NCBI RefSeq assembly: GCF_030295995.1 | Contig: NZ_AP027365.1 | Span: 806,001-870,000, forward strand | Direction: 5' to 3' | Length of the DNA: 64,000 nt | Origin: Thalassotalea hakodatensis | GTDB taxonomy: Bacteria > Pseudomonadota > Gammaproteobacteria > Enterobacterales > Alteromonadaceae | In this document: positions 50,978-64,000 of the stretch, piece by piece | How positions within the stretch are numbered: position 1 is the first letter of the stretch | Layout: every line of letters starts with the position of its first letter | The notes under the pieces: model-generated | The model's database searches: none | Told to the model about the DNA's origin: nothing | Seen by the model: only the letters and a program-made list of their open reading frames with translations | Made by a program: the position numbers and the translations under genes

Positions 50978-53311
50978 TTACAGTTTAAATTGACTTACCA
51001 GTTTACTTAACATTTCATATTCTTTTTCTACGGCATTACAGCAACTAGAGGCCTCTTTTACTGAGTTGTTATTGTCATCTGCAAGCACGTTTATTTGTTC
51101 TACTTGCTCTGCCATATCTTTACCAACCATAGATTGTTCCATGGTTGCTGACGCGACTTGGCTATTTTGTATTTCAATACTCGCGACTTGCTCAGAGATC
51201 ATTTGAAAAGTCTCACTCACTGACTCTGCGCTTAATAAGGTTTGTTCAACCATGTCTGCCGCACAGGTCATGACCGATACTGATTCGTTTGAGCCTTGTT
51301 GCAGGTTTTCAATAATGGATTGAATCTCTAGTGTAGATTCTTGTGTTCGCTGTGCTAAGGTTCTTACCTCGTCAGCAACAACAGCAAAACCTCGTCCTTG
51401 TTCACCTGCACGTGCAGCTTCAATGGCTGCATTTAATGCTAATAAGTTGGTTTGATCAGCGATACTTCTGATGACATCAAGCACGGTAACAATATTTGTT
51501 GCTTGTTCAGCAACGGTTTTGACTGTTTCCGTTGACGCCAACACCGTACTGCCTAATTCTTTCGTGACGGCTAAGCTTCTCTCAAGCGTTTCGGTTCCCA
51601 CTTTGACTTGTTCAACTGCAATAGCGCTCGCTTCGCTCGATAACGTAGCAGATTCAGCAACACTTTCAGAGGTGGTAGACATTTCTTCAATGGCTGCCGA
51701 AAGCTGAGTAGTTTTGTCAGACTGTCCGACAGACTTTTGTTCAACTAAATTAAACTTTTCTCTTAATTGGTGAACTTGTTCATCTAAAATATTAGAGGTT
51801 TTTCCCATGCTGGTTAATGTTTTATGCATGATGTTCATCATGCTATTAAAAGAGCGTGATACTTGTGCAATTTCGTCATTTTTAGTGTTATTGCTTGTCT
51901 CTTTTACTCGACGGGTAAAGTCGAGAGTTTCGGCGACCTGGTTGACAGAACTATTGAGGCTTATTATAGGTTTAGCTAAATAGTTGCCAAGCCATAAAGC
52001 GATTAAAATTCCCAAAGCCACCAATACTAATGTACTGCTTAGCGAGGTAAATACGAGTGATGAACTAAGCTGTTCGGATGCGAGAAACGCCTCATCTTGA
52101 TCGAGCTCACTTACAATTGCCCATCTATTTCCGGCGACATTAAACGCAGCATAAGCAGATGCAACGATAACACCTCTATAATCCTCAATAAAATCAAAGC
52201 CACTTTCACCGTTGATGGCTGACTTTATCGTTTTAGAATCCACTTTTGCGATCCCTAATGCTGATTTCTTTGCTGATATTAAAGCGATATCTTTTTCAGA
52301 TACTCCTGATTTTTTCAATGTCGCTAGATAGTTGTTGGTATCTTCTAATAAAAATCGACTTTCACTGCGCATTAAAAGATCACTGCCGACCAAATAAGTT
52401 TCACCAGACTTACCTAAACCCCGCTCGTGCCATTTACCTTGATAAGTCATAATGTTATTAATTCTATCTATGGGCGCTTGAAAGATAAGTGCGCCTACTG
52501 TGGCGTTATTAACCACAATAGGTGAAGAGAAAAAGGCGGCTGGGCTCTCGTAAGAGGGGGTATAAGGCGCGAAGTCTGTCATATTCACTTCGCCATGCTT
52601 AGCGGATATTGCTTGATTAAAAGCTTGTGCTAACCCCGATGTTGAAAAAGCACCATTAGAAAGCGAGGTTGCGTAATCTATCTCTTTAAAAACAGAATAA
52701 ACCACATTACCTTGTAGATCGACGATAAAAATATCGTAAAAGCCAAATTGCTCTAAATACTGTTGAAATTTAGGGTGATACTTTTGATGAATATCATCGT
52801 ATGTTGAGTCATCATTAAGTGCTATTAATTTATCTTTCTCACCTAAGCCATACTGACTCGCCGCAATATAGCGATATTGTAATGCTAGCCCTGCATCAGA
52901 TAGCTTATTAACCAATTGCGCGGTATCTAACTGGCGATGTTGGTTTTCCGACTGATACTTTTTTGAAAAATCATCTTTATAAAAGGTTGATAATTGAACT
53001 TGTTGCTGTGCCTTGTCAGGTAAAGCTGATTCTGCTGAATACCGTTGAAAACTACTGATAAATGCCTGTGTGGCATCTTCAGTCATACTCGAATTAGCAA
53101 GCGAAACAACTTGTTGGCCAATTGTTTCGAAATAGTCTGATATTTGCTCTTTTTTAGCATCACGTAGACCAATTAAACGTTGCTCAACTTGAGAAGAAAG
53201 AGCAGATGAAACATCTGTTGTTGCTATGTAGGTAAGTAATGTTGAAGTTAATATTAGCGCAATCGATACTACGCTTCCGACATTCAGTATAATTTTGTTT
53301 TTTAAACGCAT
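50978..53311 (-). CDS. Methyl-accepting chemotaxis protein
   Basis: A 777-residue chemoreceptor. Membrane helix (about 8-30), a large periplasmic double-Cache-like sensor (about 35-415, with [18 protein letters not shown] and [16 protein letters not shown]), second helix (about 418-442), HAMP, and a cytoplasmic signalling domain with the hairpin tip [20 protein letters not shown] and [14 protein letters not shown]. No C-terminal CheR pentapeptide is seen. Long Cache sensors bind small ligands such as amino acids or organic acids. Confidence 0.94.
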
Positions 53312-53560
53312 AGAGTTAAAATCTCATAAAAACACTCCATGTCTGATAACGGCTCATTTTAAGAATAGAACAGAATGAATATTTTGGTAGAAAAAAAGAT
53401 TTTTTATAAATTTGGCAATAGAAAATCATTATTAATGTTTGTAAGTTATTGCGTTTTACTTTTTTATACTTGATTGATAAGTAGGTTTTTATGGATTTTT
53501 ATTAGGGGGGCTGAAATTTAGTAAATTAGTTTTGTAGTGTTTTAACGGTGGAAAGTTTAT

Positions 53561-53850
53561 TGTTCTGCACAACTAAATCAGGACACTTTTCTTAAGGATC
53601 TACTGACGATAGATCACCATTAGCGGTATGAAGCCGTTCTAAGTTGTAATAACGCATATACGCCATCACATCCTCTCTCAAATGCTTACGAGTTGGCTGT
53701 GGTACTTTCAGTAACCACTAAATTAAGCTGAGCCATGAGCTTTTGAGTACCGTACACACTCACTTTAAAACCCTCTCTGCATAACCTTTTCGTAATTCTC
53801 GATAACCTAAGCTATTTCGACTTTGCTTAAAAATCGTTTTTGCTCTTCGA
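53561..53850 (-). pseudogene. Remnant of an IS3-family transposase (orfB)
   Basis: On the minus strand two pieces of an IS3-type transposase survive: LCREGFKVSVYGTQKLMAQL (with stops and a frameshift before it), and, after an internal deletion that removed the catalytic core, the C-terminal LREDVMAYMRYYNLERLHTA, then NGDLSSVDP. The end beginning TGTTCTGCACAACTAAATCA at 53561 looks like an IS terminal repeat. The other end is cut off by the adjacent miniature element. Confidence 0.8.
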
Positions 53851-53859
53851 TTAATAAGT

Positions 53860-54174
53860 CATACAACTCAATTAAGTATTTAGTCACTTAGCGAGAAATA
53901 AAAGGGTTAGAGGCAAGGCATTGATTGCAAAGAATGGTTATTCAGGAGAACGTGCTCCTGCGTTCTCTAATAAGCTACATCCTTGTAGCGTCCTTGTTAA
54001 AATCAATAACACAGTCTATAACCCTTTTAAACTCGCCCTTGGGAACTCATTAGCGCCCTGATAACTTCCCTAAATAATCGAACCATAGAAGCGACTATGC
54101 TTAAATTATTTAGCGTGTTTTAAGCGCGCTAATGAAGTGCTAAGTTGGCTAAATATTTAATAGAGTTGGTATCA
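53860..54174 (+). mobile_element. Miniature inverted-repeat element, copy 2 (full length)
   Basis: About 315 bases. Left end CATACAACTCAATTAAGTAT to CACTTAG; right end, other strand, GATACCAACTCTATTAAATA to ACTTAG. The interior has small hairpins (AGGAG/CTCCT around 53946; GCTACA/TGTAGC around 53975) and a nested palindrome: CATTAGCGC (54048) with GCGCTAATG (54126), CTAAATAAT (54070) with ATTATTTAG (54105), CATAG (54084) with CTATG (54095). No coding capacity. It abuts the IS3 remnant. Confidence 0.8.
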
Positions 54175-54596
54175 TTTCAAAATTTATGAAAAGCATGAAG
54201 TTAGTTTTTGTTGATATTCAACAACAGAAACTTGGTAAATCCGATCCGCTACCGATCCGTAGAGTTTAAATTGTATTTTAGTTAGTGGGTATTGTGCTTA
54301 AAACCATAACTTGACCGCGTTGTTAAACCATAAAATGGCCAAGTTAAAATATGAATTAAGTTATTTGTTAATAATTTTATCATTATCTAGTTATGAATTT
54401 TTCCAACAAAAACAAAATTAACGCCCTTCTCCTTGTTTCAATATTAAGTTATCTATTTTTCGTGAACTTTATAAATATCAGTGGTTTCGCAAATTGATCA
54501 TTTTGTTATTTGTGATAATTTAGTACGCACGTCAGCAGATGGGTGGATATTAATGCTACGTTTGTTTAACAAATATCGGGTAGACAATAGGTTTTT
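54175..54596. other. Non-coding stretch between the mobile remnants and the next gene
   Basis: About 420 bases. Very AT-rich, with only tiny reading frames (one of 27 codons at about 54186 has no support). GATCCGCTACCGATCC contains a short repeat of GATCCG. No gene or RNA was recognised; the promoter of the next gene should be near the right end. Confidence 0.4.
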
Positions 54597-55232
54597 ATGT
54601 TAGAAGCAATAATCGGTGGAGTGGTGGCAATAGCTCTTGGAGTAGCAGCAAATATAATTACTCCTCACGTTGAAAATAAATTAAAAATACGTCTCCCCGA
54701 TCACCCATCCAAAACAGAAAACTTCGAACCAAATAAAAATGCTTCAGATGATGAGTTAGAAGTTTGGAGGGCAAATAACAGACGAAATGCTCAGTTACTT
54801 TTTTGGAAATTTTACGTTTTTGGCGCATCATTTTTTGCTATGTATTTGGCAGTGTTTCTTCCACTAAGTTGGTCTGCCGGAATATCTGAAAATAGTATAA
54901 ATCTTGCGGGTTCTAGACTAGGGTTTGATTACACTGTAACACGTGATAACTTTTCAACAGTCGCAACTATTTTTGCCATGATTCTATATATACCTTGTTG
55001 GTATGTAGCACAAAAAATAGCGGATTTAATAACTTCAATTGCTCATAGGTATGGTGCTGTAAATGAAATAAAGTATGGTGTATTTATTGCGCTTGGTATG
55101 TTATTCATGGCACTTTTGGTTGCTGGCCATATGATATTTATTCTTAATCCAAGTAAAAGCTATATTGAGTCAGTTGTTTTACCATTTATAGTGTTATTAA
55201 TCGTTGGTATTTTTGCGTCAAGCAGACGATGA
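54597..55232 (+). CDS. Multi-pass membrane protein of unknown function
   Basis: A 211-residue protein with four predicted membrane helices: a short N-terminal one (IIGGVVAIALGVAANII), then about 67-88, 118-140, 158-180 and a final one near the C-terminus. Between the first two is a polar stretch (PSKTENFEPNKNASDDELEV). TAGG lies before the ATG. No family recognised. It lies at the left edge of the accessory region and converges with the Wadjet-like operon, so it may or may not belong to it. Confidence 0.65.
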   Translation: MLEAIIGGVVAIALGVAANIITPHVENKLKIRLPDHPSKTENFEPNKNASDDELEVWRANNRRNAQLLFWKFYVFGASFFAMYLAVFLPLSWSAGISENSINLAGSRLGFDYTVTRDNFSTVATIFAMILYIPCWYVAQKIADLITSIAHRYGAVNEIKYGVFIALGMLFMALLVAGHMIFILNPSKSYIESVVLPFIVLLIVGIFASSRR

Positions 55233-55269
55233 GTCTCTCAAGGTGATACACTTCTATGCTTGTGAATGT

Positions 55270-55290
55270 ACATATGTGACAGTCAGATTT
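55270..55290 (+). repeat. Short dispersed repeat, copy B
   Basis: ACATATGTGACAGTCAGATT plus T; 19 of 21 bases match 39184-39204. It lies just after the membrane-protein gene. Confidence 0.45.
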
Positions 55291-55369
55291 AAAAGGTCTC
55301 ATTAGCTGAAGTTGTTGGATAAAGTTAAGTTTTATCTAACTAACTTACTGTTTCTACTTAATATCCAAT

Positions 55370-56299
55370 TCAAAGCCATTTTATGTGTTCCCTCCATTTT
55401 TTATTGGAAAGTTTGTCATTATTAACGATACGTTTTGCTATTGCACTAGGAGCGCGTTCTAAATATGGTGACATTTGTAATGGAGAAAGTTTAAAGTCAA
55501 CTATCATGACTCTTAGCTTTTCCAAATCTTCATACGTCCAAGGTTTACCTGAATTTTTATATTGTGACTGAATCTTTTGTCTTATCGATATTCTCGATTG
55601 TTTTTCTTTTTCTCTTGTAACAAGCTCTTCCTTAAGTTGAGCTCTTAATGCCTTGTATGCTGATATTGGTGTACCTGTTCGACTTAAGTCACTCAAGAGA
55701 ATTTTTGAAGCAAAATCTAGGTCTGGTGGGTCTATTGATAGTGAGTATTTGTTTAATTTTGGATATTCAATTTTTCCTAGAATGCTCAATTGTTTTACAT
55801 TAAAAAAGCCTCTTAAATCAAATGCGGCAACTAACTTTTTCTGTATAACACTTTCTATTTTAGCGACACTTTCATAATCATAATTGGATATGGGGAGAGC
55901 CCAGACAAAGAGTTGGGGTAAATACTTATCGAAAGTGATATCTTGCCACTGTTCAGAAAAGCTTTGGCCTTTAGCAAGAAGGTTTTTAGGTTTGTCCGAG
56001 TGCAATGTTGTTGAGGCCCATATGTAGTGATTTCTTGCTAATTTTTGATATTGCTTAATATGATTTCGAATGTTAATTGCTGACATAAGACTATAAACAT
56101 CGTCATTTTTCCCAGCATTATAAACAGTTCTATTTCCGCGTAAGTAACCTTCGTAGTGCTCTGATATTCTTCTACCAACGTTGTTACTTACTCCAACATA
56201 TACAATTCTATTATATTTGCCTTTATGCACTATCAGGTATACACCGCTGCAACCTGAGTTACGTGCATCAAGTAAGGAGCCTAGATAACGCCAGTTCAT
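55370..56299 (-). CDS. GIY-YIG nuclease-domain protein linked to the SMC operon
   Basis: A 309-residue protein. An N-terminal GIY-YIG fold is recognisable: G19-V-Y in CSGVYLIVHKG, Y34-V-G in RIVYVGVSNN, R43/R44 in VGRRISEH, and a downstream Glu in AKIESVIQKK that fits the metal ligand. The C-terminal half is helical and basic (LVTREKEKQSRISIRQKIQS; KPWTYEDLEKLRVMIVDF; APSAIAKRI), with the last part resembling an SPRY- or Myb-like DNA-binding helix group. It is 39 bases behind jetB on the same strand with AAGAAG before the ATG, so it is probably the fifth gene of the operon. Role is inferred only. Confidence 0.7.
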   Translation of the reverse strand: MNWRYLGSLLDARNSGCSGVYLIVHKGKYNRIVYVGVSNNVGRRISEHYEGYLRGNRTVYNAGKNDDVYSLMSAINIRNHIKQYQKLARNHYIWASTTLHSDKPKNLLAKGQSFSEQWQDITFDKYLPQLFVWALPISNYDYESVAKIESVIQKKLVAAFDLRGFFNVKQLSILGKIEYPKLNKYSLSIDPPDLDFASKILLSDLSRTGTPISAYKALRAQLKEELVTREKEKQSRISIRQKIQSQYKNSGKPWTYEDLEKLRVMIVDFKLSPLQMSPYLERAPSAIAKRIVNNDKLSNKKWREHIKWL

Positions 56300-56338
56300 A
56301 TTGTATAACTTCTTGGAAGCATCGTTGCTCTATCCATC

Positions 56339-56881
56339 CTATCTATTAAACAATCTGTTAAAAAGGGTTGTACCCGAACTTGACAGTACATATCTATCAT
56401 CTAAGTTTTTAAACACTATTCCGCGCTCTAATAGAGTGTTATTAACTGGATGAGTTAACGGTTGCTTGATGCCACACGCTTTTAGAATTTGCGCCGACTC
56501 TTCCTCTGCGCCAATTTCATCAATGATTTTGCTAGAAACACCTGCTTTTTCGTCAAATAATATTCCAGGCGCTATACCTTGTTTACCCAGTCCTCGGGCT
56601 AATATAAGTAATATCGTTTGCATGTTTGCTGCAGTGTCATTAAATTCATTTGCCTTATCAAGTCGTGTTATAAAATAGGAAGTACTATCCAAGTCTTTCA
56701 GTGTAAAACCAAGTAATGCATATAATTCGCGATATTTATCAATATCATTTACAAGTTCTCTGAATTTTGTGGATGGAATTAGCTCTCCGTCTACATATTC
56801 AGTTTCATTGATCATTTTTCCTGAAATCAGGTCTTTATAAATTGCTTGGGAAGCAATTTGGTTTAATTGAAAATTATTCAT
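56339..56881 (-). CDS. jetB: JetB/MksE-like KITE subunit
   Basis: A 180-residue mostly helical protein. Size, position after the kleisin-like gene, and winged-helix-like C-terminal part (NNTLLERGIVFKNLDDRYVLSSSGTTLF) match the small KITE subunit (MukE/MksE/JetB) of MukBEF-like SMC complexes. The start at 56881 overlaps the kleisin stop by 8 bases with GAGG upstream, so translation is coupled. Assignment is by architecture and context; residue-level similarity is weak. Confidence 0.68.
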   Translation of the reverse strand: MNNFQLNQIASQAIYKDLISGKMINETEYVDGELIPSTKFRELVNDIDKYRELYALLGFTLKDLDSTSYFITRLDKANEFNDTAANMQTILLILARGLGKQGIAPGILFDEKAGVSSKIIDEIGAEEESAQILKACGIKQPLTHPVNNTLLERGIVFKNLDDRYVLSSSGTTLFNRLFNR

Positions 56882-58280
56882 GTGATGTTGCCTCAAGGCG
56901 CTTAATCATGTAACTAAGCTTATGGTTACCGTAGATGATTTCACTTTTTTTCAGAGTTTTTCTAATCTTCCATCGTTCATCAATAAAAGGTAATGCGTCA
57001 TATATATCTGCCAGTTGGTAGTCAGTCATTGAGCTTACTAGTAATTCATGTATTTCTAGATAAACGTCTTCTATAGCTTCCGAAGGTTCAAAGTTTGTCA
57101 TTGCATCTTTCATTATGCGTATTCGCTTTCTTTCTCGTAACGTTTCTTTGGCTGTTTGTCGTTTAGCAGACGGCTTGCGTTTGTTACTTCCAAGTGCATC
57201 AACGCGATTTAGTTTGGTTCGAATGTACTCATCAAGCGCATATTTAAAATCGTTTTTAGGAAATTCAAATAGTGCTGAGGTTAAGTTTGAACGAGACCAG
57301 TTATGTAACCCCCAAAGTATTCTCGAATCTGCAAAGAGAGGGGATGAAGAAGAAAGTTGCTTACCTTTTAGCTTTGCATCCATTGTTAAAACTGCTGCAC
57401 TATGAAGTTCATTGAATCGCTCTTCTATTCGGTTATAAAGCTCCCGTTGCTGTCTATCCATATCAACGTATCGGTACAATCGTTGGCGAATATCTCGAAT
57501 TACTTCAGAATAAGACAATAACTTCATTTCAATTGATGAAATATTACGATGTTGAACAATAAACGGTGTATTCTCTAACTGCTGACGCATTTTGCGAATC
57601 ATGTACAGTGCTGATGAAGCTTTAACCATCGCTTTTTCATTTAAAAAGATCAGAGTTGGTTGAATGTTTCGTTTTGATATCTGAATAATTTCATCAATAG
57701 CACTTCTTACTTGCTCTGTAGCTACGAGTTTGTTGAAATCATGGCTTTCCAGTATTTCAGACAAGCGTTTTGAACTGCCGTCTAATGCACGAACATTATG
57801 TGCAATCTTGGCTAAAGTATCTTGCATAATATCCATCAAGGACATTAAGTGTTCTGCTGTTTCCGTATTTTTCGAATGCAGGTCGCATGTTGGAGATTGA
57901 AAAAAGCGAAACAAAGTTTGAATTTGTGCTGTAATAATATCTAAATCAGGTTGCCCCAACTCTCTAATTCGCTTTGAATCTAAGCATTGGATTGTTTGCA
58001 AAAGACCTGATTGAATAGCGAAAATCCCTCTTTGCTCATTGATAAAGCTCAGTAAGCTGCAGGCATTTAAGTTATTAAGGCTTAATGAGTTGCTAATTCG
58101 ATCTCTTTCTTTTTTATCTTCGATCTTGGTTCTTGCGTAATGCTCTAGAACTGCTTCGTATTCAGAAATTCGAAAACAGGTTGCGGATTTGGATTCGTGA
58201 GCATAGAAATCCAAAAGTGAAAAATAAATTTCAACATGTTGAAAAATCAGCACTAGCGTATTTTGAGCATTTGTTTCCAT
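56874..58280 (-). CDS. jetA: JetA/MksF-like kleisin subunit
   Basis: A 468-residue protein that I read as the kleisin of the complex. The N-terminal part is a winged-helix-like dimerisation region (about 1-110), followed by long helices (about 130-300, with ALYMIRKMRQQLENTPF and VIRDIRQRLYRYVDMDR), a basic KRKPSAKRQTAKETLRERKR stretch, and a C-terminal winged-helix-like part. This order fits MksF/JetA. It begins 4 bases after the jetC stop and overlaps jetB. Normal Wadjet JetA is about 480-500 residues. Confidence 0.72.
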   Translation of the reverse strand: METNAQNTLVLIFQHVEIYFSLLDFYAHESKSATCFRISEYEAVLEHYARTKIEDKKERDRISNSLSLNNLNACSLLSFINEQRGIFAIQSGLLQTIQCLDSKRIRELGQPDLDIITAQIQTLFRFFQSPTCDLHSKNTETAEHLMSLMDIMQDTLAKIAHNVRALDGSSKRLSEILESHDFNKLVATEQVRSAIDEIIQISKRNIQPTLIFLNEKAMVKASSALYMIRKMRQQLENTPFIVQHRNISSIEMKLLSYSEVIRDIRQRLYRYVDMDRQQRELYNRIEERFNELHSAAVLTMDAKLKGKQLSSSSPLFADSRILWGLHNWSRSNLTSALFEFPKNDFKYALDEYIRTKLNRVDALGSNKRKPSAKRQTAKETLRERKRIRIMKDAMTNFEPSEAIEDVYLEIHELLVSSMTDYQLADIYDALPFIDERWKIRKTLKKSEIIYGNHKLSYMIKRLEATSHE

Positions 58281-58284
58281 GAAA

Positions 58285-61260
58285 TTACTTAACCACTTCT
58301 TCTATATTTGATTCGCTAGTAGCTTCTAATCGTTCTTCCATTCCTGGGAAATATATTGCCTCAGCTTTGTGATGTACATCTACATCTGTCGCCTTAAATA
58401 TTGATAGGTCATGTGATACTTCTAGTACATTAACAATAACTCCCGTTGGTGCTGGGTTTGCTGCAAACAATATCAGGCCGTTTTCTTGCATTGCTTTAAG
58501 TACTTCTTTAAGGTTGTGCGAATCTAGTTTACCTACTTCATCAAATATAACAGGCATTGTGAGTTTTAAGTCTTCAGGTACAAGACGTTTCAATAGTTGA
58601 GCTAACATAACCGCATTAATCATGCTATTTGTCCCATTTGATTGAGGAACATCTTCTTTACCGTTACCACGATCAAATTCATAAGAAACGGATTCAATGA
58701 TTTTGGGAATATTTATTTTACTGGACTTACGTATATAGAATTGATTTTGAAAAGCTGATATTTGTTTATAGAACTCTTCAGAAATTAAATTGTCTGTCAC
58801 ACTGGTGTAGCGAGATATGCTTTTGATCATATCAAGGTACTGAGGGTGAAGTTCTGCCTTAATTTGGACCTTTTCTAAATTAGATATTTTGTATTCAGCA
58901 AGCTCTGTGTTAATCCCCGTAATTTCTGATTCTATGATGTCTTTTACGTTCTCAATGATACGTGCTGAAGTAGCTGCGTTGTTATTATGTGCATTGAGCC
59001 TTAATTGATACTTTTCTTCTGCGGCACTAATGTTTTCAAACACAGATTCTAATGATGAATAGTAAGTTTCGAAGGCATCTTTAGTTAGAGTAAACTGATT
59101 TTTCTCTTCAACAGATACGTTAATAACATTAGCTCTCAGTAATGACTGAAACCCTTCGAAAACGTCTTGTCTAGAGCTTCGAAAATGTATCAAAAGTGAG
59201 CTTAGGGATTGAATCTCCTCGCTGACAATATTTTCCTGAAAAGGCGGGAGTTCTGGTGATTCATTCACGGTAGTTGAAATGGATTCATAGCTTACAGAGC
59301 GATATGATTCATTGGCTATTGATTGTAAGTTTTGTATATAGCTATTAAGCGACTGTAGGTTATTCAGAATTGTTTGTACTTGAATTTGTAATTTATCATG
59401 TTTTTCTTTTAATGCTTTATGATGAGCCTCTGCTTGTTTTTCTGTTCCCTCTGATTGACTAACTTTTACTTTTAATGCTGCGATTTTTTCTTTTGCACTA
59501 TCTCTCATTGATATTAGAGCAGCACAACCAGTATAGGCTTCTTTTTGGGTATTTAGCTCTTCAAGCTCTTTTGATAACTCAGTTAATTTTGCAGATCTAG
59601 CATCTTTTGTCATTTTGATAAAACCTGCATTTTTACGCATTTCATTAGATAATTGCTCTTGCTTATCATCAAGTTCGTCAATTTGTTTAATGAGTTGTTC
59701 TCGAGCTTCTTCAGCCGACGCTTCTGTGATCTTTATAGGTGTAGTTCTCTCACAAATAGTTAAAAATTCTTTATCTTTGCCAAATAAATCAGTAAATGAT
59801 TCAATTGTATTTTTTTGAGTTTTTGTTAGTTGGCATGATACTTCAGCTAGCCCTTTATTTAGACTTTGTAGTACAGACTTTCCATGCGATGAGAGTTGAC
59901 CAAACAAATCTGAATTATTTTCTATTGCCAATAATGCGTTTTTTAAATTATTTAATTTAATATTATTATCTTGAATCGTTTTATTGTGGCTTTTAACTAA
60001 TGCCTGTGCTGTTTCTTCGCTATTCAGTGAGTCAATGTCTCGTTGGCATAATCTGATTTCTTCTTCTAATTCACAGATGATTGCACTATCTGTTGGGTTA
60101 TCACATAACGGTGCTAACCTAGCACGAGCGTTTTCTGCTAATTGAATTTTCTCGTTACATTCTTCAAACTGTTCATTGAAAGACTTTAATTTGGCGATCT
60201 CTCCAGATAAGGTTTTTCCTGCCTCTTTAGCTTCGGTTGAAGCTTGGGTTACTTTCGGAGAAATCTCTGCGGCTTGGCGAGATAAATCTTGATGTTGGGA
60301 CTTGAGTTTTTTTTCATACATCGCTACTTGGGTTGCTGTAGCTGTAAAATTGGTTGCCAGCTTTTCACGATGTTCCTGATAAAGTTTATTATTGTCTTTA
60401 AGCTTTTGCCAAACTGGCTGATTGGATCTTACTGTAGATAAATAACTTTCAATTTCTTTGAGCTCATCAAATTCATTTAAAGCGTCAGTAATATCTACAA
60501 TAATACCATCATCTTTCACTACGCTCATTCCTCGACCATCAATCATATTACCAATTGCACGAGGTAATGTGGTTGTCGAAGCGTCTGCTAGGCTAAATGC
60601 CATACCGACTAAAGCTCGAACTGTCTCGACATTAGCTAATGTGTATTTGTTTGCCATAGGCAGCAAGCTGAAGCGAGTATGGTTGTTATCACTAGATGTT
60701 CTGGTATAAATTGCTTCACCAATAGATTGTTTATCAGTAAATAATACTCCTTTATAGTCACGGTTTTGTAAGGTCTTTTTGACTTCAGTGATATTGATAT
60801 TTGGTTGAAGCTGACCGGCTCCTTCATTTGCTATTGAAGTTCCATTCCAAAATAGGTGTTCAATATTGCCATAGTCTGTTGGAACAGCTATACGTTGATA
60901 ACCTAAGTCAGTTGTTCTAAAAAGCACCCAGCAAAAGTTTCCTTTTGGGTTTTTGGCATTACAGATGATGTATGATTCAGTTGATGGAAAGTAATATTTA
61001 AATGAATCTAAATTAGAAAAGTACTTCCCTCCTGATTCGAAACCAAATTTATCTTCACAGTTTTTAAAGTTCACTTCTGGAAGAAGGAATAGTTTCAATG
61101 CAGCAAGCGAAGATGTCTTTCCTTCGTTATTACCTGCGAAAAGTGCCGCGTTTGTATCTAACGGTATACGTGAATAATAGTTAGAACCACTATTGATAAA
61201 TATAAGCTCTAATAGCTCGTAGTTTGTTGGCAAATCTAAGGGAAGAATATTAGAACTCAT
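58285..61260 (-). CDS. jetC: JetC/MksB-like SMC ATPase
   Basis: A 991-residue SMC-like ATPase. Walker A at residues 43-50 (GNNEGKTS, K48), preceded by NAALFAG; long coiled-coil arms (about 290-800, for example EKKLKSQHQDLSRQAAEI, ELSKELEELNTQKEAY); and a C-terminal head with DVPQSNGTNSMINAVMLA in place of the signature, Walker B TMPVIFDEVGKLD and a D-loop. The family extrudes DNA loops. A longer in-frame start at 61341 would overlap jetD by 92 bases; 61260 overlaps it by 11 and has AGGA upstream. Somewhat shorter than the usual JetC (about 1100). Confidence 0.88.
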   Translation of the reverse strand: MSSNILPLDLPTNYELLELIFINSGSNYYSRIPLDTNAALFAGNNEGKTSSLAALKLFLLPEVNFKNCEDKFGFESGGKYFSNLDSFKYYFPSTESYIICNAKNPKGNFCWVLFRTTDLGYQRIAVPTDYGNIEHLFWNGTSIANEGAGQLQPNINITEVKKTLQNRDYKGVLFTDKQSIGEAIYTRTSSDNNHTRFSLLPMANKYTLANVETVRALVGMAFSLADASTTTLPRAIGNMIDGRGMSVVKDDGIIVDITDALNEFDELKEIESYLSTVRSNQPVWQKLKDNNKLYQEHREKLATNFTATATQVAMYEKKLKSQHQDLSRQAAEISPKVTQASTEAKEAGKTLSGEIAKLKSFNEQFEECNEKIQLAENARARLAPLCDNPTDSAIICELEEEIRLCQRDIDSLNSEETAQALVKSHNKTIQDNNIKLNNLKNALLAIENNSDLFGQLSSHGKSVLQSLNKGLAEVSCQLTKTQKNTIESFTDLFGKDKEFLTICERTTPIKITEASAEEAREQLIKQIDELDDKQEQLSNEMRKNAGFIKMTKDARSAKLTELSKELEELNTQKEAYTGCAALISMRDSAKEKIAALKVKVSQSEGTEKQAEAHHKALKEKHDKLQIQVQTILNNLQSLNSYIQNLQSIANESYRSVSYESISTTVNESPELPPFQENIVSEEIQSLSSLLIHFRSSRQDVFEGFQSLLRANVINVSVEEKNQFTLTKDAFETYYSSLESVFENISAAEEKYQLRLNAHNNNAATSARIIENVKDIIESEITGINTELAEYKISNLEKVQIKAELHPQYLDMIKSISRYTSVTDNLISEEFYKQISAFQNQFYIRKSSKINIPKIIESVSYEFDRGNGKEDVPQSNGTNSMINAVMLAQLLKRLVPEDLKLTMPVIFDEVGKLDSHNLKEVLKAMQENGLILFAANPAPTGVIVNVLEVSHDLSIFKATDVDVHHKAEAIYFPGMEERLEATSESNIEEVVK

Positions 61261-62059
61261 ATCGGTAGCTTTCCTGCTCAATGGTTGTTTTATAATGGCG
61301 GATAAGAGTGATAAGTTGGTTTGTCGTTTCTGAGAGGCCATAATTACTTGAAAGTGAATTTAATTCTTTAGTACAGGCTTTCCTTTTTGAATTTTCTAAT
61401 CGCTCTTTGATGTCATAGGGAAAAAGAAACTTCGTGTTATCTATTTCTAAGCCTGCTTTGATTAAATTTGAGTAGATACTTAGCCCGCCTTGGTCGATAT
61501 CAAATAAACAAAATACTTGGCCGTTAAATTTCTTTAAGTAAGGGATTATTAAAGAATTAGTTATGCTATTTCCAGCAGCCCAAAGAAACTCAATATCTTT
61601 AATATCCATATCAAAATCACAATGGTTTGATACGAAGTGAAAGGTATGTTCAAAGGTTAAAAAGCACTCTAGATTTTCAATTATCAAGCAATGAGTTTTT
61701 TGAGGTGTGTCAACTAACCGATCTTTTTTAAATAAGTGATTATATGGCACTACATTACCTGAAGTATTAGCTACTAGCAGCGCTCCATCGACTTTTTCTA
61801 AGTGCGAATTTCCACGATTGGATGCCGCACTTCGGGTTTTAAGCGAATGGCTTTCAATAATTACTTTAAACTGATTGACTAATTTTTCCGATGCTATTGC
61901 TACAGCGTAAGCATCATCACTATACCTTGTTACTTTAAATGCACGTTTGATTTCTTTATCAGCAATACCAAATTTAGCCAATTGACTGGAAAATTTTTTC
62001 CAATTAATAGCTCGACCCATTTCTATGTCCCAAAAAGCTTTTTTAAGTGATGGTTTCAC
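61250..62059 (-). CDS. jetD: JetD/MksG-like Toprim nuclease subunit, short form
   Basis: A 269-residue protein, first gene of the operon. The C-terminal part has the Toprim pattern of JetD (topoisomerase VI-like): E128 in CLIIENLECFL and D187-x-D189 in FCLFDIDQGGLSIYSNL, the metal-binding acids. The N-terminal part (about 1-110) is helical and basic and corresponds to a reduced DUF3322-like arm region. JetD is normally near 380-390 residues, so this is a compact version. In Wadjet, JetD cleaves plasmid DNA after loop extrusion by JetABC. Confidence 0.8.
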   Translation of the reverse strand: MKPSLKKAFWDIEMGRAINWKKFSSQLAKFGIADKEIKRAFKVTRYSDDAYAVAIASEKLVNQFKVIIESHSLKTRSAASNRGNSHLEKVDGALLVANTSGNVVPYNHLFKKDRLVDTPQKTHCLIIENLECFLTFEHTFHFVSNHCDFDMDIKDIEFLWAAGNSITNSLIIPYLKKFNGQVFCLFDIDQGGLSIYSNLIKAGLEIDNTKFLFPYDIKERLENSKRKACTKELNSLSSNYGLSETTNQLITLIRHYKTTIEQESYRYEF

Positions 62060-62083
62060 ATTTACTAGTCGTTAATTGTTTTT

Positions 62084-62105
62084 ATGTATCATATGATATT
62101 TTAAT
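62084..62105. promoter_or_regulatory. Candidate WYL-regulator operator in front of jetD
   Basis: ATGTATCATATGATATTTTA plus AT. The centre TATCATATGATA is a perfect 12-base palindrome. It lies about 25 bases before the jetD start and recurs at 62159. Confidence 0.72.
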
Positions 62106-62158
62106 TGTGCGTGCAAAGTTGTTTTTCACTTTATATTTTACATTTTATTGTTTTTTTA

Positions 62159-62180
62159 ATGTATCATATGGAATATTAAT
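62159..62180. promoter_or_regulatory. Candidate WYL-regulator operator in front of the regulator gene
   Basis: ATGTATCATATGGAATATTA plus AT, sharing the first 12 bases with the site at 62084 and again followed by TTAAT or TATTAAT. It lies 20 bases before the regulator start. Two sites, one per promoter, suggest shared repression. Confidence 0.7.
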
Positions 62181-62200
62181 TTGTGATTAGAGTTAACATC

Positions 62201-63058
62201 ATGGATATTACTGAGTTGCAAACTCATGAACGATTCAAGTTCATTGAGTTTCTCTTATTATTTAAAGGGCAACTGACACGTTCTGAACTTGTAGAGCGTT
62301 TTGGAATAGGCGAAGCTACTGCAAGCAGACTGATCAAATCGTATATTGATAAGAACCCTAATCAAGAAAATTACTTAGGGCCGCGTTTAGGTTACGTCAA
62401 AGCCGATACTTTTCAAATTGAATATAAACATGATGCATTAGATGGTTTGAGGTATGTTGCGTCAGGTAAACTGCTTAGTCAATTTAAGGTTGTAACCTAT
62501 GGCTTAACTATTCATTCATTTAACCAGAGCTTATCAACAGAATTGGTTGCCCCTGTCACAAGAGCTATTGTAGGCCTAAGATATGTGTCACTGGACTATA
62601 TTTCTTCAAGTAGTGGCATTTCAAGTCGAGTAATTGCTCCTCATAGTTTATTTATGGCATCTGGTACATGGTATTTTCGAGCGTATGATATGCAATCATC
62701 AACATTTAGAACGTTTAAGTTTAGCCGAATTAAGAACGCTGTTACGCTTGGAGAGATTGATAATGTAATTCATAGTGATATAAAGGATGACTCTTGGCAT
62801 CAAATGCGCGCAGTTAAACTAAAGCCTCATCCCAAGTTGGAGCACGCTGAAGCTATAGAACTTGAACTTCAGACATCACCAGTGAAAGACATTTACATTT
62901 CGGAAGCTACTTTAGGGTTTGCGATGTCAGAGCTAAGAGTTGATTGTTCTAAAAAGCATAAATTGAGTCACGTAGAGTACCCTCTAATTCTTGTTAATCG
63001 CGATGAACTAGAAAACGTTGATTCGATGGTGCTTGCGCCAGGTTTTTTAATTACTTAG
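62201..63058 (+). CDS. WYL-domain transcriptional regulator, CapW/BrxR type
   Basis: A 285-residue regulator: N-terminal winged HTH (about 10-60, RFKFIEFLLLFKGQLTRSEL, VERFGIGEATASRLIKSYI), a WYL domain (about 115-200, with SRVIAPHSLFMASGTWYFRA and FRTFKFSRI), and a C-terminal WCX-like part. This is the layout of CapW/BrxR proteins, which repress CBASS, BREX and other defence loci as dimers. The ATG at 62201 is preferred to an upstream GTG at 62183. It is divergent from jetD across two operator candidates, so it probably controls the Wadjet-like operon and itself. Confidence 0.85.
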   Translation: MDITELQTHERFKFIEFLLLFKGQLTRSELVERFGIGEATASRLIKSYIDKNPNQENYLGPRLGYVKADTFQIEYKHDALDGLRYVASGKLLSQFKVVTYGLTIHSFNQSLSTELVAPVTRAIVGLRYVSLDYISSSSGISSRVIAPHSLFMASGTWYFRAYDMQSSTFRTFKFSRIKNAVTLGEIDNVIHSDIKDDSWHQMRAVKLKPHPKLEHAEAIELELQTSPVKDIYISEATLGFAMSELRVDCSKKHKLSHVEYPLILVNRDELENVDSMVLAPGFLIT

Positions 63059-63075
63059 CCCTAAGACGTCTATAG

Positions 63076-63662
63076 CTATGTTAGGCGTTTAAACTGTACT
63101 AAATTTACATATATATTAGCTATTTCTTGAGCATACTGTTTAGAGAATCCTTCATTAAACAGCAAGTAGGCCATATCTTCTTCCGTTAAGGGGGAGCGCA
63201 TACGGCTTTTGTGGACGAAATTGTAAAACCTTCGCCAATCTAAAGATAGCGAGTACCAAATTTTTTGTTATATGCGGATAGAAGGGGAGCAAACAGGTAT
63301 TTTGCTTCATTTACATATACCTCGTAACTTAGATGTGTCACTGGATTCCATTGGATGGCTCTCAATTCAACAATTACTCTATTGTTTTTATCCGATTGAG
63401 TGATTAGCTGAACTCCTAGTCCATGATGATTTTTTGAATTTAAAACACGGAAATTAGTGATACTCAAACCATCAAAGTCTTGCAGGTCCTAGGTTGCTTC
63501 GACGTTAAATTCACCAGATTGAACCGCAATTTTAGTCATTTCATTTATGAAAACGGCTGGAGAGTTTTTAACATTTATGTGAATAGTAGGAAGTAGGTTA
63601 AGCATATTGGTTAAAAATAAAGCTTTTGATTTTAAAGTTAAGTAACGGCAATCTTGAAACAT
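63076..63662 (-). pseudogene. Decayed gene with an internal stop and a frameshift
   Basis: One reading frame runs from the ATG at 63662 but has an in-frame TAG at 63489-63491 (between NVEAT and DLQDFDGLSI). It continues as NFRVLNSKNHHGLGVQLITQ to AYNKKFGTRYL and ends at 63240. From there a second frame is open with YSLSLDWRRFYNFVHKSR and TEEDMAYLLFNEGFSKQYAQ to 63076. Joining the frames at the six-A run near 63260 gives a continuous product of about 195 residues. Family not recognised; the C-terminal part looks like a small helical domain. It converges with the WYL gene. Sequencing error is possible at the A-run. Confidence 0.65.
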
Positions 63663-63740
63663 AAGTATTAATTAAACAATTACAATATGTTTTTATCCAG
63701 CATATTTAATGAAAAACTAAATTTACTAATTTTGATAGAC

Positions 63741-63980
63741 TTAGAATGCACTGTTAACCTTTAGAAACTGAGTCAACTTATCCCGAAAACTCAATATGTT
63801 GATCTGTTTCGATTTAGGTAAATTATTATTAAAATCTTTAATGACCTCATTTAGTAATTGAGGTTCTGAAATATAGGAATGCTGAAGAAATACTAATTCT
63901 TCGAATATTTTGTTTGTATTAAGTTTTCTGCATATTGCTAGTAGTTTTTTTTCTTCTTCGGGGAGTAAGACACTAATCAA
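63741..63980 (-). CDS. Hypothetical protein at the window edge (possibly partial)
   Basis: A 79-residue frame with a TTG start at 63980 near an AAGG; no stop is met upstream before the window ends, so the gene may extend further. The product is helical and polar (LPEEEKKLLAICRKLNTNKI; EVIKDFNNNLPKSKQINIL). No family recognised. Belongs to the accessory region by position. Confidence 0.45.
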   Translation of the reverse strand: MISVLLPEEEKKLLAICRKLNTNKIFEELVFLQHSYISEPQLLNEVIKDFNNNLPKSKQINILSFRDKLTQFLKVNSAF

Positions 63981-64000
63981 ATACCTTGCTAGCTTTAGAA

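What the first reader, a model, noticed from the sequence alone, without database searches (positions are those of the whole stretch)
55370..63058. Wadjet/Mks-like SMC operon in the order D-C-A-B with a linked GIY-YIG gene and a CapW/BrxR-type repressor
Seen: tightly packed minus-strand genes (overlaps of 11 and 8 bases, gaps of 4 and 39) coding for a compact Toprim protein, an SMC ATPase, a kleisin-like and a KITE-like protein, then a GIY-YIG protein. Known: Wadjet (JetABCD) and MksBEFG restrict plasmids using an SMC loop extruder and a Toprim nuclease, and the described operons usually have jetA-jetB-jetC together in that order. Inference: this is a divergent subtype with the nuclease gene first and the SMC gene before the kleisin, a shortened JetD and JetC, and possibly a second nuclease. 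This is the best candidate in the window for an under-described system.
Basis: partly seen in the sequence, partly recalled or inferred. Interest (0 to 1): 0.85.

Follow-up and report, generated by a model that had tools for sequence, protein, structure and literature searches.

The report
Unclassified Wadjet-like SMC-nuclease gene cluster
A bacterium carries a compact, unclassified relative of the Wadjet machines, which reel in small circular DNA with a ring-shaped motor and cut it; sister copies with the same gene order occur across many gamma-proteobacteria, and a standard defence-gene library misses most of its parts.

Summary
Observation confirmed: genes, overlaps and gaps are as described. 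Four of the five genes form a real unit: D, a Toprim nuclease of MksG/JetD fold; C, an SMC ATPase; A, a kleisin; B, an MksE-type KITE. The order D-C-A-B holds in 28 of 28 public loci that show all four genes. A, B and C match no PADLOC Wadjet type I-III profile convincingly; only D touches JetD1/JetD3. None of 39 other related genomes has the SMC; an Ec67-like retron lies about 4.5 kb away. A diverged second D-C-A-B copy lies elsewhere in the chromosome. The GIY-YIG gene is judged not part of the system: it is absent from the 37 other family loci and its relatives stand without D-C-A-B on two plasmids examined. The BrxR/CapW-type regulator is real but optional; four of five divergent regulator-D pairs share a 12-bp palindrome. 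Two loci of one subclade lack D, suggesting nuclease loss towards a plain condensin. Verdict: a new variant (candidate new type) of the Wadjet/Mks kind, not a new kind. The gene order of types II/III could not be checked. Plasmid restriction is inferred, not shown.

The parts
61250..62059 (-). D: Toprim nuclease, 269 aa, MksG/JetD/TopoVI-A fold with a short (~90 aa) N-terminal part; first gene of the operon
   Evidence: AF2 model pLDDT 90.2; VIA Z 14.1 to 8b7f (C. glutamicum nuclease, i.e. MksG) over 150 residues, Z 12.1 to JetD 7til; E128, D187, D189 and the EQE end invariant in 26 of 26 aligned rows; PADLOC JetD3 3.1e-7
58285..61260 (-). C: SMC ATPase, 991 aa from the ATG at 61260 (ORF open to 61341, 1018 aa)
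   Evidence: Walker A, QSxGT signature and Walker B DE kept in 26 of 26 aligned rows; Pfam DUF3584 in 12 and AAA_15 in 10 of 26 rows, the window's own row not among them; hhalign 99.9% to another compact SMC group
56874..58280 (-). A: kleisin, 468 aa, MukF/JetA-like
   Evidence: AF2 model pLDDT 77.6; Foldseek's top four are a Wadjet JetABC chain (8as8_E) and MukF or MukBEF chains 9gm9_D, 3euh_A, 1t98_A, at E 1.5e-3 to 3.7e-3; VIA Z 14.8 to MukF
56339..56881 (-). B: KITE subunit, MksE family, 180 aa (185 aa from the TTG at 56896)
   Evidence: Pfam MksE PF21980 E 1.3e-12, 48.9 bits over a 27-bit cut-off
62087..62098 (.). perfect palindrome TATCATATGATA, putative operator of the WYL regulator in the D-WYL intergenic stretch
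   Evidence: same palindrome class exact in L015 and L019 and with one mismatch in L027, absent at L090; lies in a 31-nt direct repeat 62076-62106 / 62151-62181
62162..62173 (.). second, imperfect copy of the palindrome (2 mismatches)
62183..63058 (+). divergent wHTH-WYL regulator of BrxR/CapW type; optional companion
   Evidence: PDB phmmer: 7qfz (listed as WYL domain-containing protein; recalled to be BrxR of E. fergusonii) 1e-33 over residues 11-288, BrxR 7t8k 8e-15, CapW 9c5g 3e-10; family member beside D in 4 clear cases of 37 loci
55370..56299 (-). GIY-YIG protein 39 bases downstream; neighbour, judged NOT part of the system
   Evidence: no homologue in the 37 family loci; genes 59-62% identical on 4 plasmid records, no D, C, A or B match within 9 kb in the two examined

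Best explanation
A four-gene SMC-nuclease defence system of the Wadjet/Mks kind, from a lineage outside the PADLOC type I-III profiles. C dimers with kleisin A and KITE B form a loop-extruding motor (parts shown by sequence and fold; assembly and extrusion inferred). D is held inactive and is triggered when the motor has reeled in a small circular DNA, which it then cuts (inferred from Wadjet type I and II). A divergent BrxR/CapW-type protein, where present, represses the operon from palindromic sites and lets it be induced (inferred). The GIY-YIG gene is a passenger.
For: Kleisin and nuclease folds; MksE Pfam match; invariant ATPase and Toprim residues in 26 aligned rows; D-C-A-B in 28 of 28 loci that show all four genes and matched divergence of the four subunits, r 0.95-0.99 over 28 rows; patchy spread and a genome-specific setting; some neighbours that are known defence genes; both family copies found on plasmids lie on records over 300 kb; shared palindrome.
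Against: I found no functional data for any member. D lacks the long N-terminal arm of JetD/MksG. One subclade lacks D, so part of the family may do something other than cut DNA. Many neighbours are housekeeping genes; the defence matches are mostly one neighbour each among 101, and the scan had no control set. The kleisin fold matches are led by the right proteins but with low TM-scores (0.20-0.28 by query). The complex was not modelled.
Confidence: 0.75

Rival explanations
1. A chromosome-organising condensin (Mks/MukBEF-like) in which D is an accessory decatenase- or topoisomerase-like factor rather than a defence nuclease.
For: B is in the MksE family; C-A-B without D exists in L022, and L046 shows C without D; MukF gives the best kleisin structural match; D also resembles Topo VI-A and Spo11.
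Against: No such SMC in 39 related genomes, three of them of the same genus; genome-specific setting; some defence neighbours; D seen in 34 of the 37 loci, with an invariant metal site in the 26 rows aligned (rows chosen for having all four genes). A core condensin would be expected throughout the genus.
Confidence: 0.12
2. An anti-phage system that senses phage DNA topology or ends, as Lamassu-type SMC-like systems do, rather than plasmid circles.
For: Weak LmuB profile similarity of C (E 0.0012); phage-defence neighbours such as an Ec67-like retron and Gabija and pAgo genes at other loci.
Against: Lamassu is described as LmuA, LmuB and LmuC (PMC10586767, passages), with no kleisin or KITE (recalled); the LmuB match spans residues 287-874, mostly coiled coil; D has the MksG/JetD fold.
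Confidence: 0.1
3. The five genes including GIY-YIG form one system with two nucleases.
For: 39-base gap and same strand.
Against: No homologue in 37 family loci, including the Colwellia locus whose SMC is 69% identical; relatives stand without D-C-A-B on two plasmids examined.
Confidence: 0.03

Closest known systems
Wadjet type I (JetABCD) / MksBEFG of Corynebacterium
   Same: Kleisin + KITE + SMC + Toprim nuclease in one tight operon; D fold (8b7f, 7til) and kleisin fold (8as8) match.
   Different: Order D-C-A-B, not A-B-C-D (mksFEBG in a passage of PMC10123090; A-B-C-D by size in L082 and L083, of which L082 C is JetC1 by PADLOC); no PADLOC Jet match for 26 of 26 kleisins; C 956-1027 aa versus 1134 and 1218; D 257-329 aa (some starts look too long) versus 400 and 378. 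hhalign of A and B to these two loci is at noise level (0.5% and 0.3%).
Wadjet type II and III
   Same: Same four roles; JetD3 is the best PADLOC match of the window's D (3.1e-7); the kleisin gives Z 10.3 to a chain of N. vireti Wadjet-II JetABC (9qe0, rmsd 21 over 237 residues).
   Different: C scores E 0.089 and weaker against JetC2/JetC3, and the window's A and B match no PADLOC model at E 1 or better. I could not see the gene order of these types.
Compact A-B-C-D group with DUF7281 nuclease (group Y here: L077, L078, L079, L081)
   Same: Nearest SMC relative (hhalign 99.9%) and KITE relative (95.7%) of those compared; short SMC 917-936 aa; L081 also has a BrxR/CapW-like WYL gene.
   Different: Order A-B-C-D; kleisin similarity weak (probability 23%, E 9e-4); L077 proteins match PADLOC Jet models only weakly (best JetC1 2e-5, JetB2 5e-4).
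MksBEF/MukBEF condensins without nuclease
   Same: MksE-type KITE, MukF-like kleisin.
   Different: Toprim nuclease gene first in the operon, except at L022 and L046.
BrxR/CapW regulators
   Same: Near whole-length match to BrxR-type structures; a passage of PMC9122601 reports BrxR homologues beside Wadjet among other systems.
   Different: Here a 12-bp palindrome TATCAnnTGATA rather than the 10-11-bp inverted repeats with 5-bp spacer described in PMC9122601 and PMC9122589 (passages); optional companion.

Membership tests
Wadjet/Mks kind (SMC + kleisin + KITE + Toprim nuclease) | SMC-type ATPase with Walker A, signature and Walker B | tested here: met
   all three kept in 26 of 26 aligned rows
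Wadjet/Mks kind (SMC + kleisin + KITE + Toprim nuclease) | kleisin subunit | tested here: met
   Foldseek and VIA: MukF and a JetABC chain lead; pLDDT 77.6, stretches within 322-375 unreliable
Wadjet/Mks kind (SMC + kleisin + KITE + Toprim nuclease) | KITE subunit | tested here: met
   Pfam MksE over cut-off
Wadjet/Mks kind (SMC + kleisin + KITE + Toprim nuclease) | TopoVI-A-like Toprim nuclease with acidic metal site | tested here: met
Wadjet/Mks kind (SMC + kleisin + KITE + Toprim nuclease) | JetD N-terminal arm/CAP region (about 200 aa) | tested here: inconclusive
   only ~90 aa precede the Toprim; predicted helices and two strands that could be a lone winged helix, not searched alone
Wadjet/Mks kind (SMC + kleisin + KITE + Toprim nuclease) | ATP-dependent cleavage of small circular DNA / plasmid restriction | not testable with these tools
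   needs bench work
Wadjet types I, II or III (PADLOC 2023 profiles) | JetA, JetB, JetC and JetD profile matches of one type | tested here: not met
   A: no Jet match in 26 of 26; B: two JetB1 models, in 2 and 1 of 25, best E 0.005; C: JetC at E 0.089 or weaker in the window (other members not scanned); only D matches, split between JetD1 and JetD3 models
Wadjet type I / MksBEFG | gene order kleisin-KITE-SMC-nuclease | tested here: not met
   D-C-A-B in 28 of 28 loci with all four genes
Wadjet types II and III | gene order of the type | not tested
   no type II/III locus found (0 of 249 and 0 of 200 genomes, controls silent too); order not found in the passages read
Lamassu | LmuA effector + LmuB, without kleisin or KITE (the latter recalled) | tested here: not met
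   kleisin and KITE are present
BrxR/CapW regulator | wHTH-WYL architecture over most of the length | tested here: met
   7qfz over 11-288 (1e-33), 7t8k BrxR over 17-281 (8e-15); WYL Pfam 1.1e-13
BrxR/CapW regulator | inverted-repeat operator in its promoter region | tested here: inconclusive
   shared palindrome in 4 of 5 divergent WYL-D pairs; binding not shown

The most novel reading that the evidence does not exclude
A separate, fourth lineage of SMC plasmid-restriction machines, confined as far as seen to gamma-proteobacteria: a minimal nuclease without the JetD arm, and a short-armed SMC whose hinge is reduced to a stretch of about 65 residues. That would break the reported link between channel-less hinges and long arms. 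It has also lost its nuclease in one subclade to become a plain condensin, a live example of the route proposed for MksBEF.
Probability: 0.35. Interest if true: 0.68.

Novelty: new variant of a known kind. Interest (0 to 1): 0.52.

Why it matters
The PADLOC library misses three of the four genes, so plasmid immunity in Marinobacter, Halomonas, Methylobacter, Psychrobacter, Endozoicomonas and relatives may be undercounted. The system is compact and would be a good test object for two open questions: how much of JetD and of the SMC arms and hinge is needed to recognise small circles, and whether condensins arose from such defence systems by loss of the nuclease.

Tried and rejected
Viral contigs held no relative (105 pattern matches, none confirmed); phage records none for the second-copy SMC or the GIY-YIG protein; plasmid records none for the window's kleisin, although two more distant copies do lie on plasmids. 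Searches for type II/III JetC in 249 and 200 Pseudomonadota genomes rang nowhere, controls included, so they show nothing. Sequence profiles of C, A and B found no SMC, kleisin or KITE in the PDB; the C matches look like generic coiled coils and were set aside. Considered and rejected: two-nuclease system with GIY-YIG; Lamassu; housekeeping condensin (see rivals). ARAGORN finds no tRNA in the window; the repeat scan of 52500-64000 shows no direct repeat flanking the operon. The gene beyond the synteny break in a same-genus genome was sought in the own genome to size the island and not found. Rows dropped: alignments A5, A6 and A8 hold the window and 25 of the 28 four-gene loci (L017, L031, L045, with broken genes, left out), and A7 leaves out L024 (B cut by the contig end) as well. 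Of 113 neighbour genes listed I gave 101 to the family scans, leaving out 12 from L023, L032, L033, L040 and L042 to limit near-copies; no control set was scanned.

Not in print: nine paper searches listed no title or abstract on a D-C-A-B type, and none held DUF7281; the library holds only open-licence papers, so this is weak. Papers: passages only of PMC10123090, PMC12287153, PMC12647877, PMC9122601 and PMC9122589; abstract and passages of PMC10586767. The papers that first defined the Wadjet types and Mks were not seen (recalled; the Mks one was not held).
Full report
WHAT IS THERE. The minus-strand cluster is intact. In order of transcription: D 61250-62059 (269 aa, GTG start), C 58285-61260 (991 aa from the ATG at 61260, with AGGAAAG shortly before it), A 56874-58280 (468 aa), B 56339-56881, then a GIY-YIG gene 55370-56299. 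Upstream and divergent, 123 bases away, lies a WYL-domain regulator at 62183-63058.

WHAT THE PROTEINS ARE. B matches Pfam MksE (1.3e-12, over cut-off). The kleisin had no telling Pfam or PADLOC relative by sequence. Its AlphaFold2 model (pLDDT 77.6) has the layout of a kleisin as I read it: N-terminal winged helix, long helical bundle, C-terminal helices and strands. Foldseek's four best matches are a chain of Wadjet JetABC 8as8 and MukF or MukBEF chains 9gm9, 3euh and 1t98, at E 1.5e-3 to 3.7e-3 and low TM-scores. VIA gives MukF Z 14.8 (rmsd 8.3 over 236 residues); Stat3 helical bundles reach Z 12.0, so the margin is modest, but MukF, MukEF or MukBEF entries fill the first eight rows. D folds confidently (pLDDT 90.2). 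Foldseek's two matches under E 0.001 are the C. glutamicum nuclease 8b7f (MksG) and Spo11 8urq; VIA gives 8b7f Z 14.1 (rmsd 2.7, 150 residues), Topo VI-A and JetD 7til Z 12.1. E128, D187, D189 and a C-terminal EQE are invariant in 26 of 26 aligned rows. About 90 residues precede the Toprim, against about 217 in 8b7f (chain range). C carries Walker A, QSxGT signature and Walker B in 26 of 26 rows; 12 of 26 rows match DUF3584 and 10 AAA_15, the window's own row none at E 0.001.

IT IS A FAMILY. A scan of public prokaryote genomes with a three-row SMC alignment gave 37 loci, in Colwellia, Wohlfahrtiimonas, Endozoicomonas, Marinobacter, Halomonas, Nitrincola, Psychrobacter, Acinetobacter, Methylobacter and others; by their titles all are gamma-proteobacteria or unplaced Pseudomonadota MAGs. 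In 28 of the 37 all four genes were found, always D-C-A-B on one strand. In three of these a gene is broken (D in L017 and L045, C in L031). Of the other nine, seven (L019, L028, L029, L035, L041, L050, L051) agree with the order as far as the contig or an interruption lets one see, and two (L022, L046) lack D. A Methylophaga thalassica plasmid of 320 kb has WYL-D-C-A-B, and a Photobacterium damselae plasmid of 599 kb has D-C, two extra small genes, A-B; in both the four genes are annotated as hypothetical proteins. Pairwise distances of the four subunits correlate at r 0.95-0.99 over 28 rows, so they travel together.

RELATION TO KNOWN TYPES. PADLOC profiles for types I-III do not recognise A (0 of 26), hardly B (two JetB1 models, in 2 and 1 of 25, best E 0.005) and C only at E 0.089 or weaker in the window. 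D matches JetD1 and JetD3 models, best about 3e-7, the commonest model in 15 of 26. A Pfam family of unknown function, DUF7281, matches 9 of 26 D proteins, the window's own not among them. Searching it in the class gave 12 of 321 genomes, the own one included through its second copy, and led to two further kinds of SMC operon. Group Y is A-B-C with SMCs of 917-936 aa and the nuclease downstream (D read as an ORF in L077 and L081). Group X has SMCs of about 1225 aa, in two of its three loci followed by a KITE-sized protein, a kleisin-sized protein and the nuclease. PADLOC finds nothing in the four L076 proteins and only weak Jet matches in L077. By hhalign our C is closest to group Y (99.9%), then X (99.5%), then type I (85.5%); B to Y (95.7%); A only weakly to Y (23%, E 9e-4) and not to X or I; D to X (91.7%), Y (81.8%) and I (43.9%); six deliberately wrong pairs stayed at 0.4% or less. 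Groups X, Y and I have only 2-4 rows each. In an SMC tree the 29 D-C-A-B rows fall on one side of a branch with weak support (57/49): one origin is possible, not shown. I could not see the gene orders of types II and III.

CONTEXT. Synteny with two same-genus genomes runs through the chemotaxis gene and stops near 53460 (53312 with the second); the fetched stretches of those genomes, about 17 kb beyond the break, show no match in the own genome up to about 49 kb further on. None of 39 other related genomes has the SMC (1 of 40, the own genome), and a kleisin profile finds 3 of 303 genomes of the class, own included. About 4.5 kb beyond the regulator, outside the window, lies a retron Ec67-like protein (E 6e-103). 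At other loci the nearest neighbours include Gabija genes, type III restriction-modification, a class I pAgo and a viperin-like protein, mostly one neighbour each, and mad2 in two, among 101 scanned (first 25 of 155 families shown), but also many housekeeping genes. The same chromosome holds a second, diverged D-C-A-B operon directly behind a WYL gene, with a TnsA-like gene nearby.

REGULATOR AND GIY-YIG. The WYL protein matches BrxR and CapW structures. Regulators of its family sit beside D in L015, L019, L027 and L037, with a weak case at L029, of 37 loci (31 show at least 900 bases before D), and beside the second copy and the Methylophaga plasmid copy: an optional companion. Five WYL-D pairs are divergent: window, L015, L019, L027, L090. 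The window, L015 and L019 carry exact TATCAnnTGATA palindromes in or at the edge of that stretch, L027 one with a single mismatch, and L090 none. Counting sites with at most one mismatch in the first four stretches gives 5, against a shuffle mean of 0.08 and maximum of 2 in 2000 mononucleotide shuffles; the motif was read from these same stretches, so this overstates significance. None was found before the co-directional pairs L037 and L052 or at L081 of group Y. The GIY-YIG gene has no homologue in the family loci. Genes 59-62% identical to it lie on 4 of 72,556 plasmid records; in the two examined no D, C, A or B match lies within 9 kb.

NUCLEASE LOSS. In L022 (C-A-B, behind a gene that reads by eye as a histidine kinase) and L046 (C start, behind genes that read by eye as cytochromes) D is absent; their SMCs are 67% identical over 197 residues. 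A D profile finds nothing in either whole MAG, nor in that of L035; MAGs are incomplete. L022 nests among D-bearing rows (SH-aLRT 98 and 97 for the enclosing groups, 85 for the nearest). This fits the idea in a passage of PMC10586767 that MksBEF arose by loss of JetD.

MECHANISM. Shown: parts, folds of A and D, intact catalytic residues, fixed order, co-inheritance, genome-specific setting with some defence neighbours. Inferred from Wadjet I and II (passages of PMC10586767, PMC12647877): loop extrusion, full reeling-in of a small circle, cleavage by D. The two plasmid records that carry the family exceed 300 kb, in keeping with a size limit, but n is 2. The best-conserved stretch between the two coiled halves of C is about 65 residues (455-520), and the SMC spans 956-1027 aa in the 26 aligned rows. 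If that is a channel-less hinge, the family departs from the trend in a passage of PMC12647877 that channel-less SMCs mostly have long arms. This is an inference without a model.

VERDICT. A real, conserved, under-described variant of the Wadjet/Mks kind and a fair candidate for a new type; not a new kind of system.

Noticed in passing
L052:5445-12067 (G000:C1, about 4055444-4062066): Second, diverged D-C-A-B operon in the same chromosome, directly behind a WYL gene; a TnsA-like gene (L052:1000-1641, PDB TnsA-TnsB fusion E 2e-4) lies about 3.8 kb before it, which may mean Tn7-like carriage.
   Followed up: partly
L014:15581-17548 (outside the window, about 4.5 kb beyond the regulator): Retron Ec67-like reverse transcriptase protein (E 6e-103 to 9lm3), with an IS3-like transposase pair, as read by eye, at L014:13617-14740 between it and the operon.
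   Followed up: partly
L022:1736-6413 and L046:10028-10618: Members of the family without the nuclease gene, in two uncultured gamma-proteobacterial genomes.
   Followed up: yes
L077, L078, L079, L081: Another SMC operon outside or at the edge of the PADLOC types: A-B-C with 917-936 aa SMCs and a DUF7281 nuclease downstream; L081 has a BrxR/CapW-like gene beside it.
   Followed up: partly
L071, L073, L076: A third group: SMC of about 1225 aa with a DUF7281 nuclease as last gene; no PADLOC match for the four L076 proteins.
   Followed up: partly
window 53864-54175: A roughly 310-base element found again at six other places in the chromosome (two partial; 86-98% identical) and in two same-genus genomes, lying just past the synteny break at 53460.
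   Followed up: no
L091:10923-11697: On a Photobacterium damselae megaplasmid two small genes (one DUF5406) sit between C and A of a D-C-A-B operon.
   Followed up: no
L092:5233-10696: Persicobacter (Bacteroidota) plasmid with a 413 aa, 184 aa, 1228 aa trio; the last two match our KITE (3e-5) and SMC (5e-19) profiles, the first looks kleisin-like by size and order only; no D match within the stretch.
   Followed up: partly
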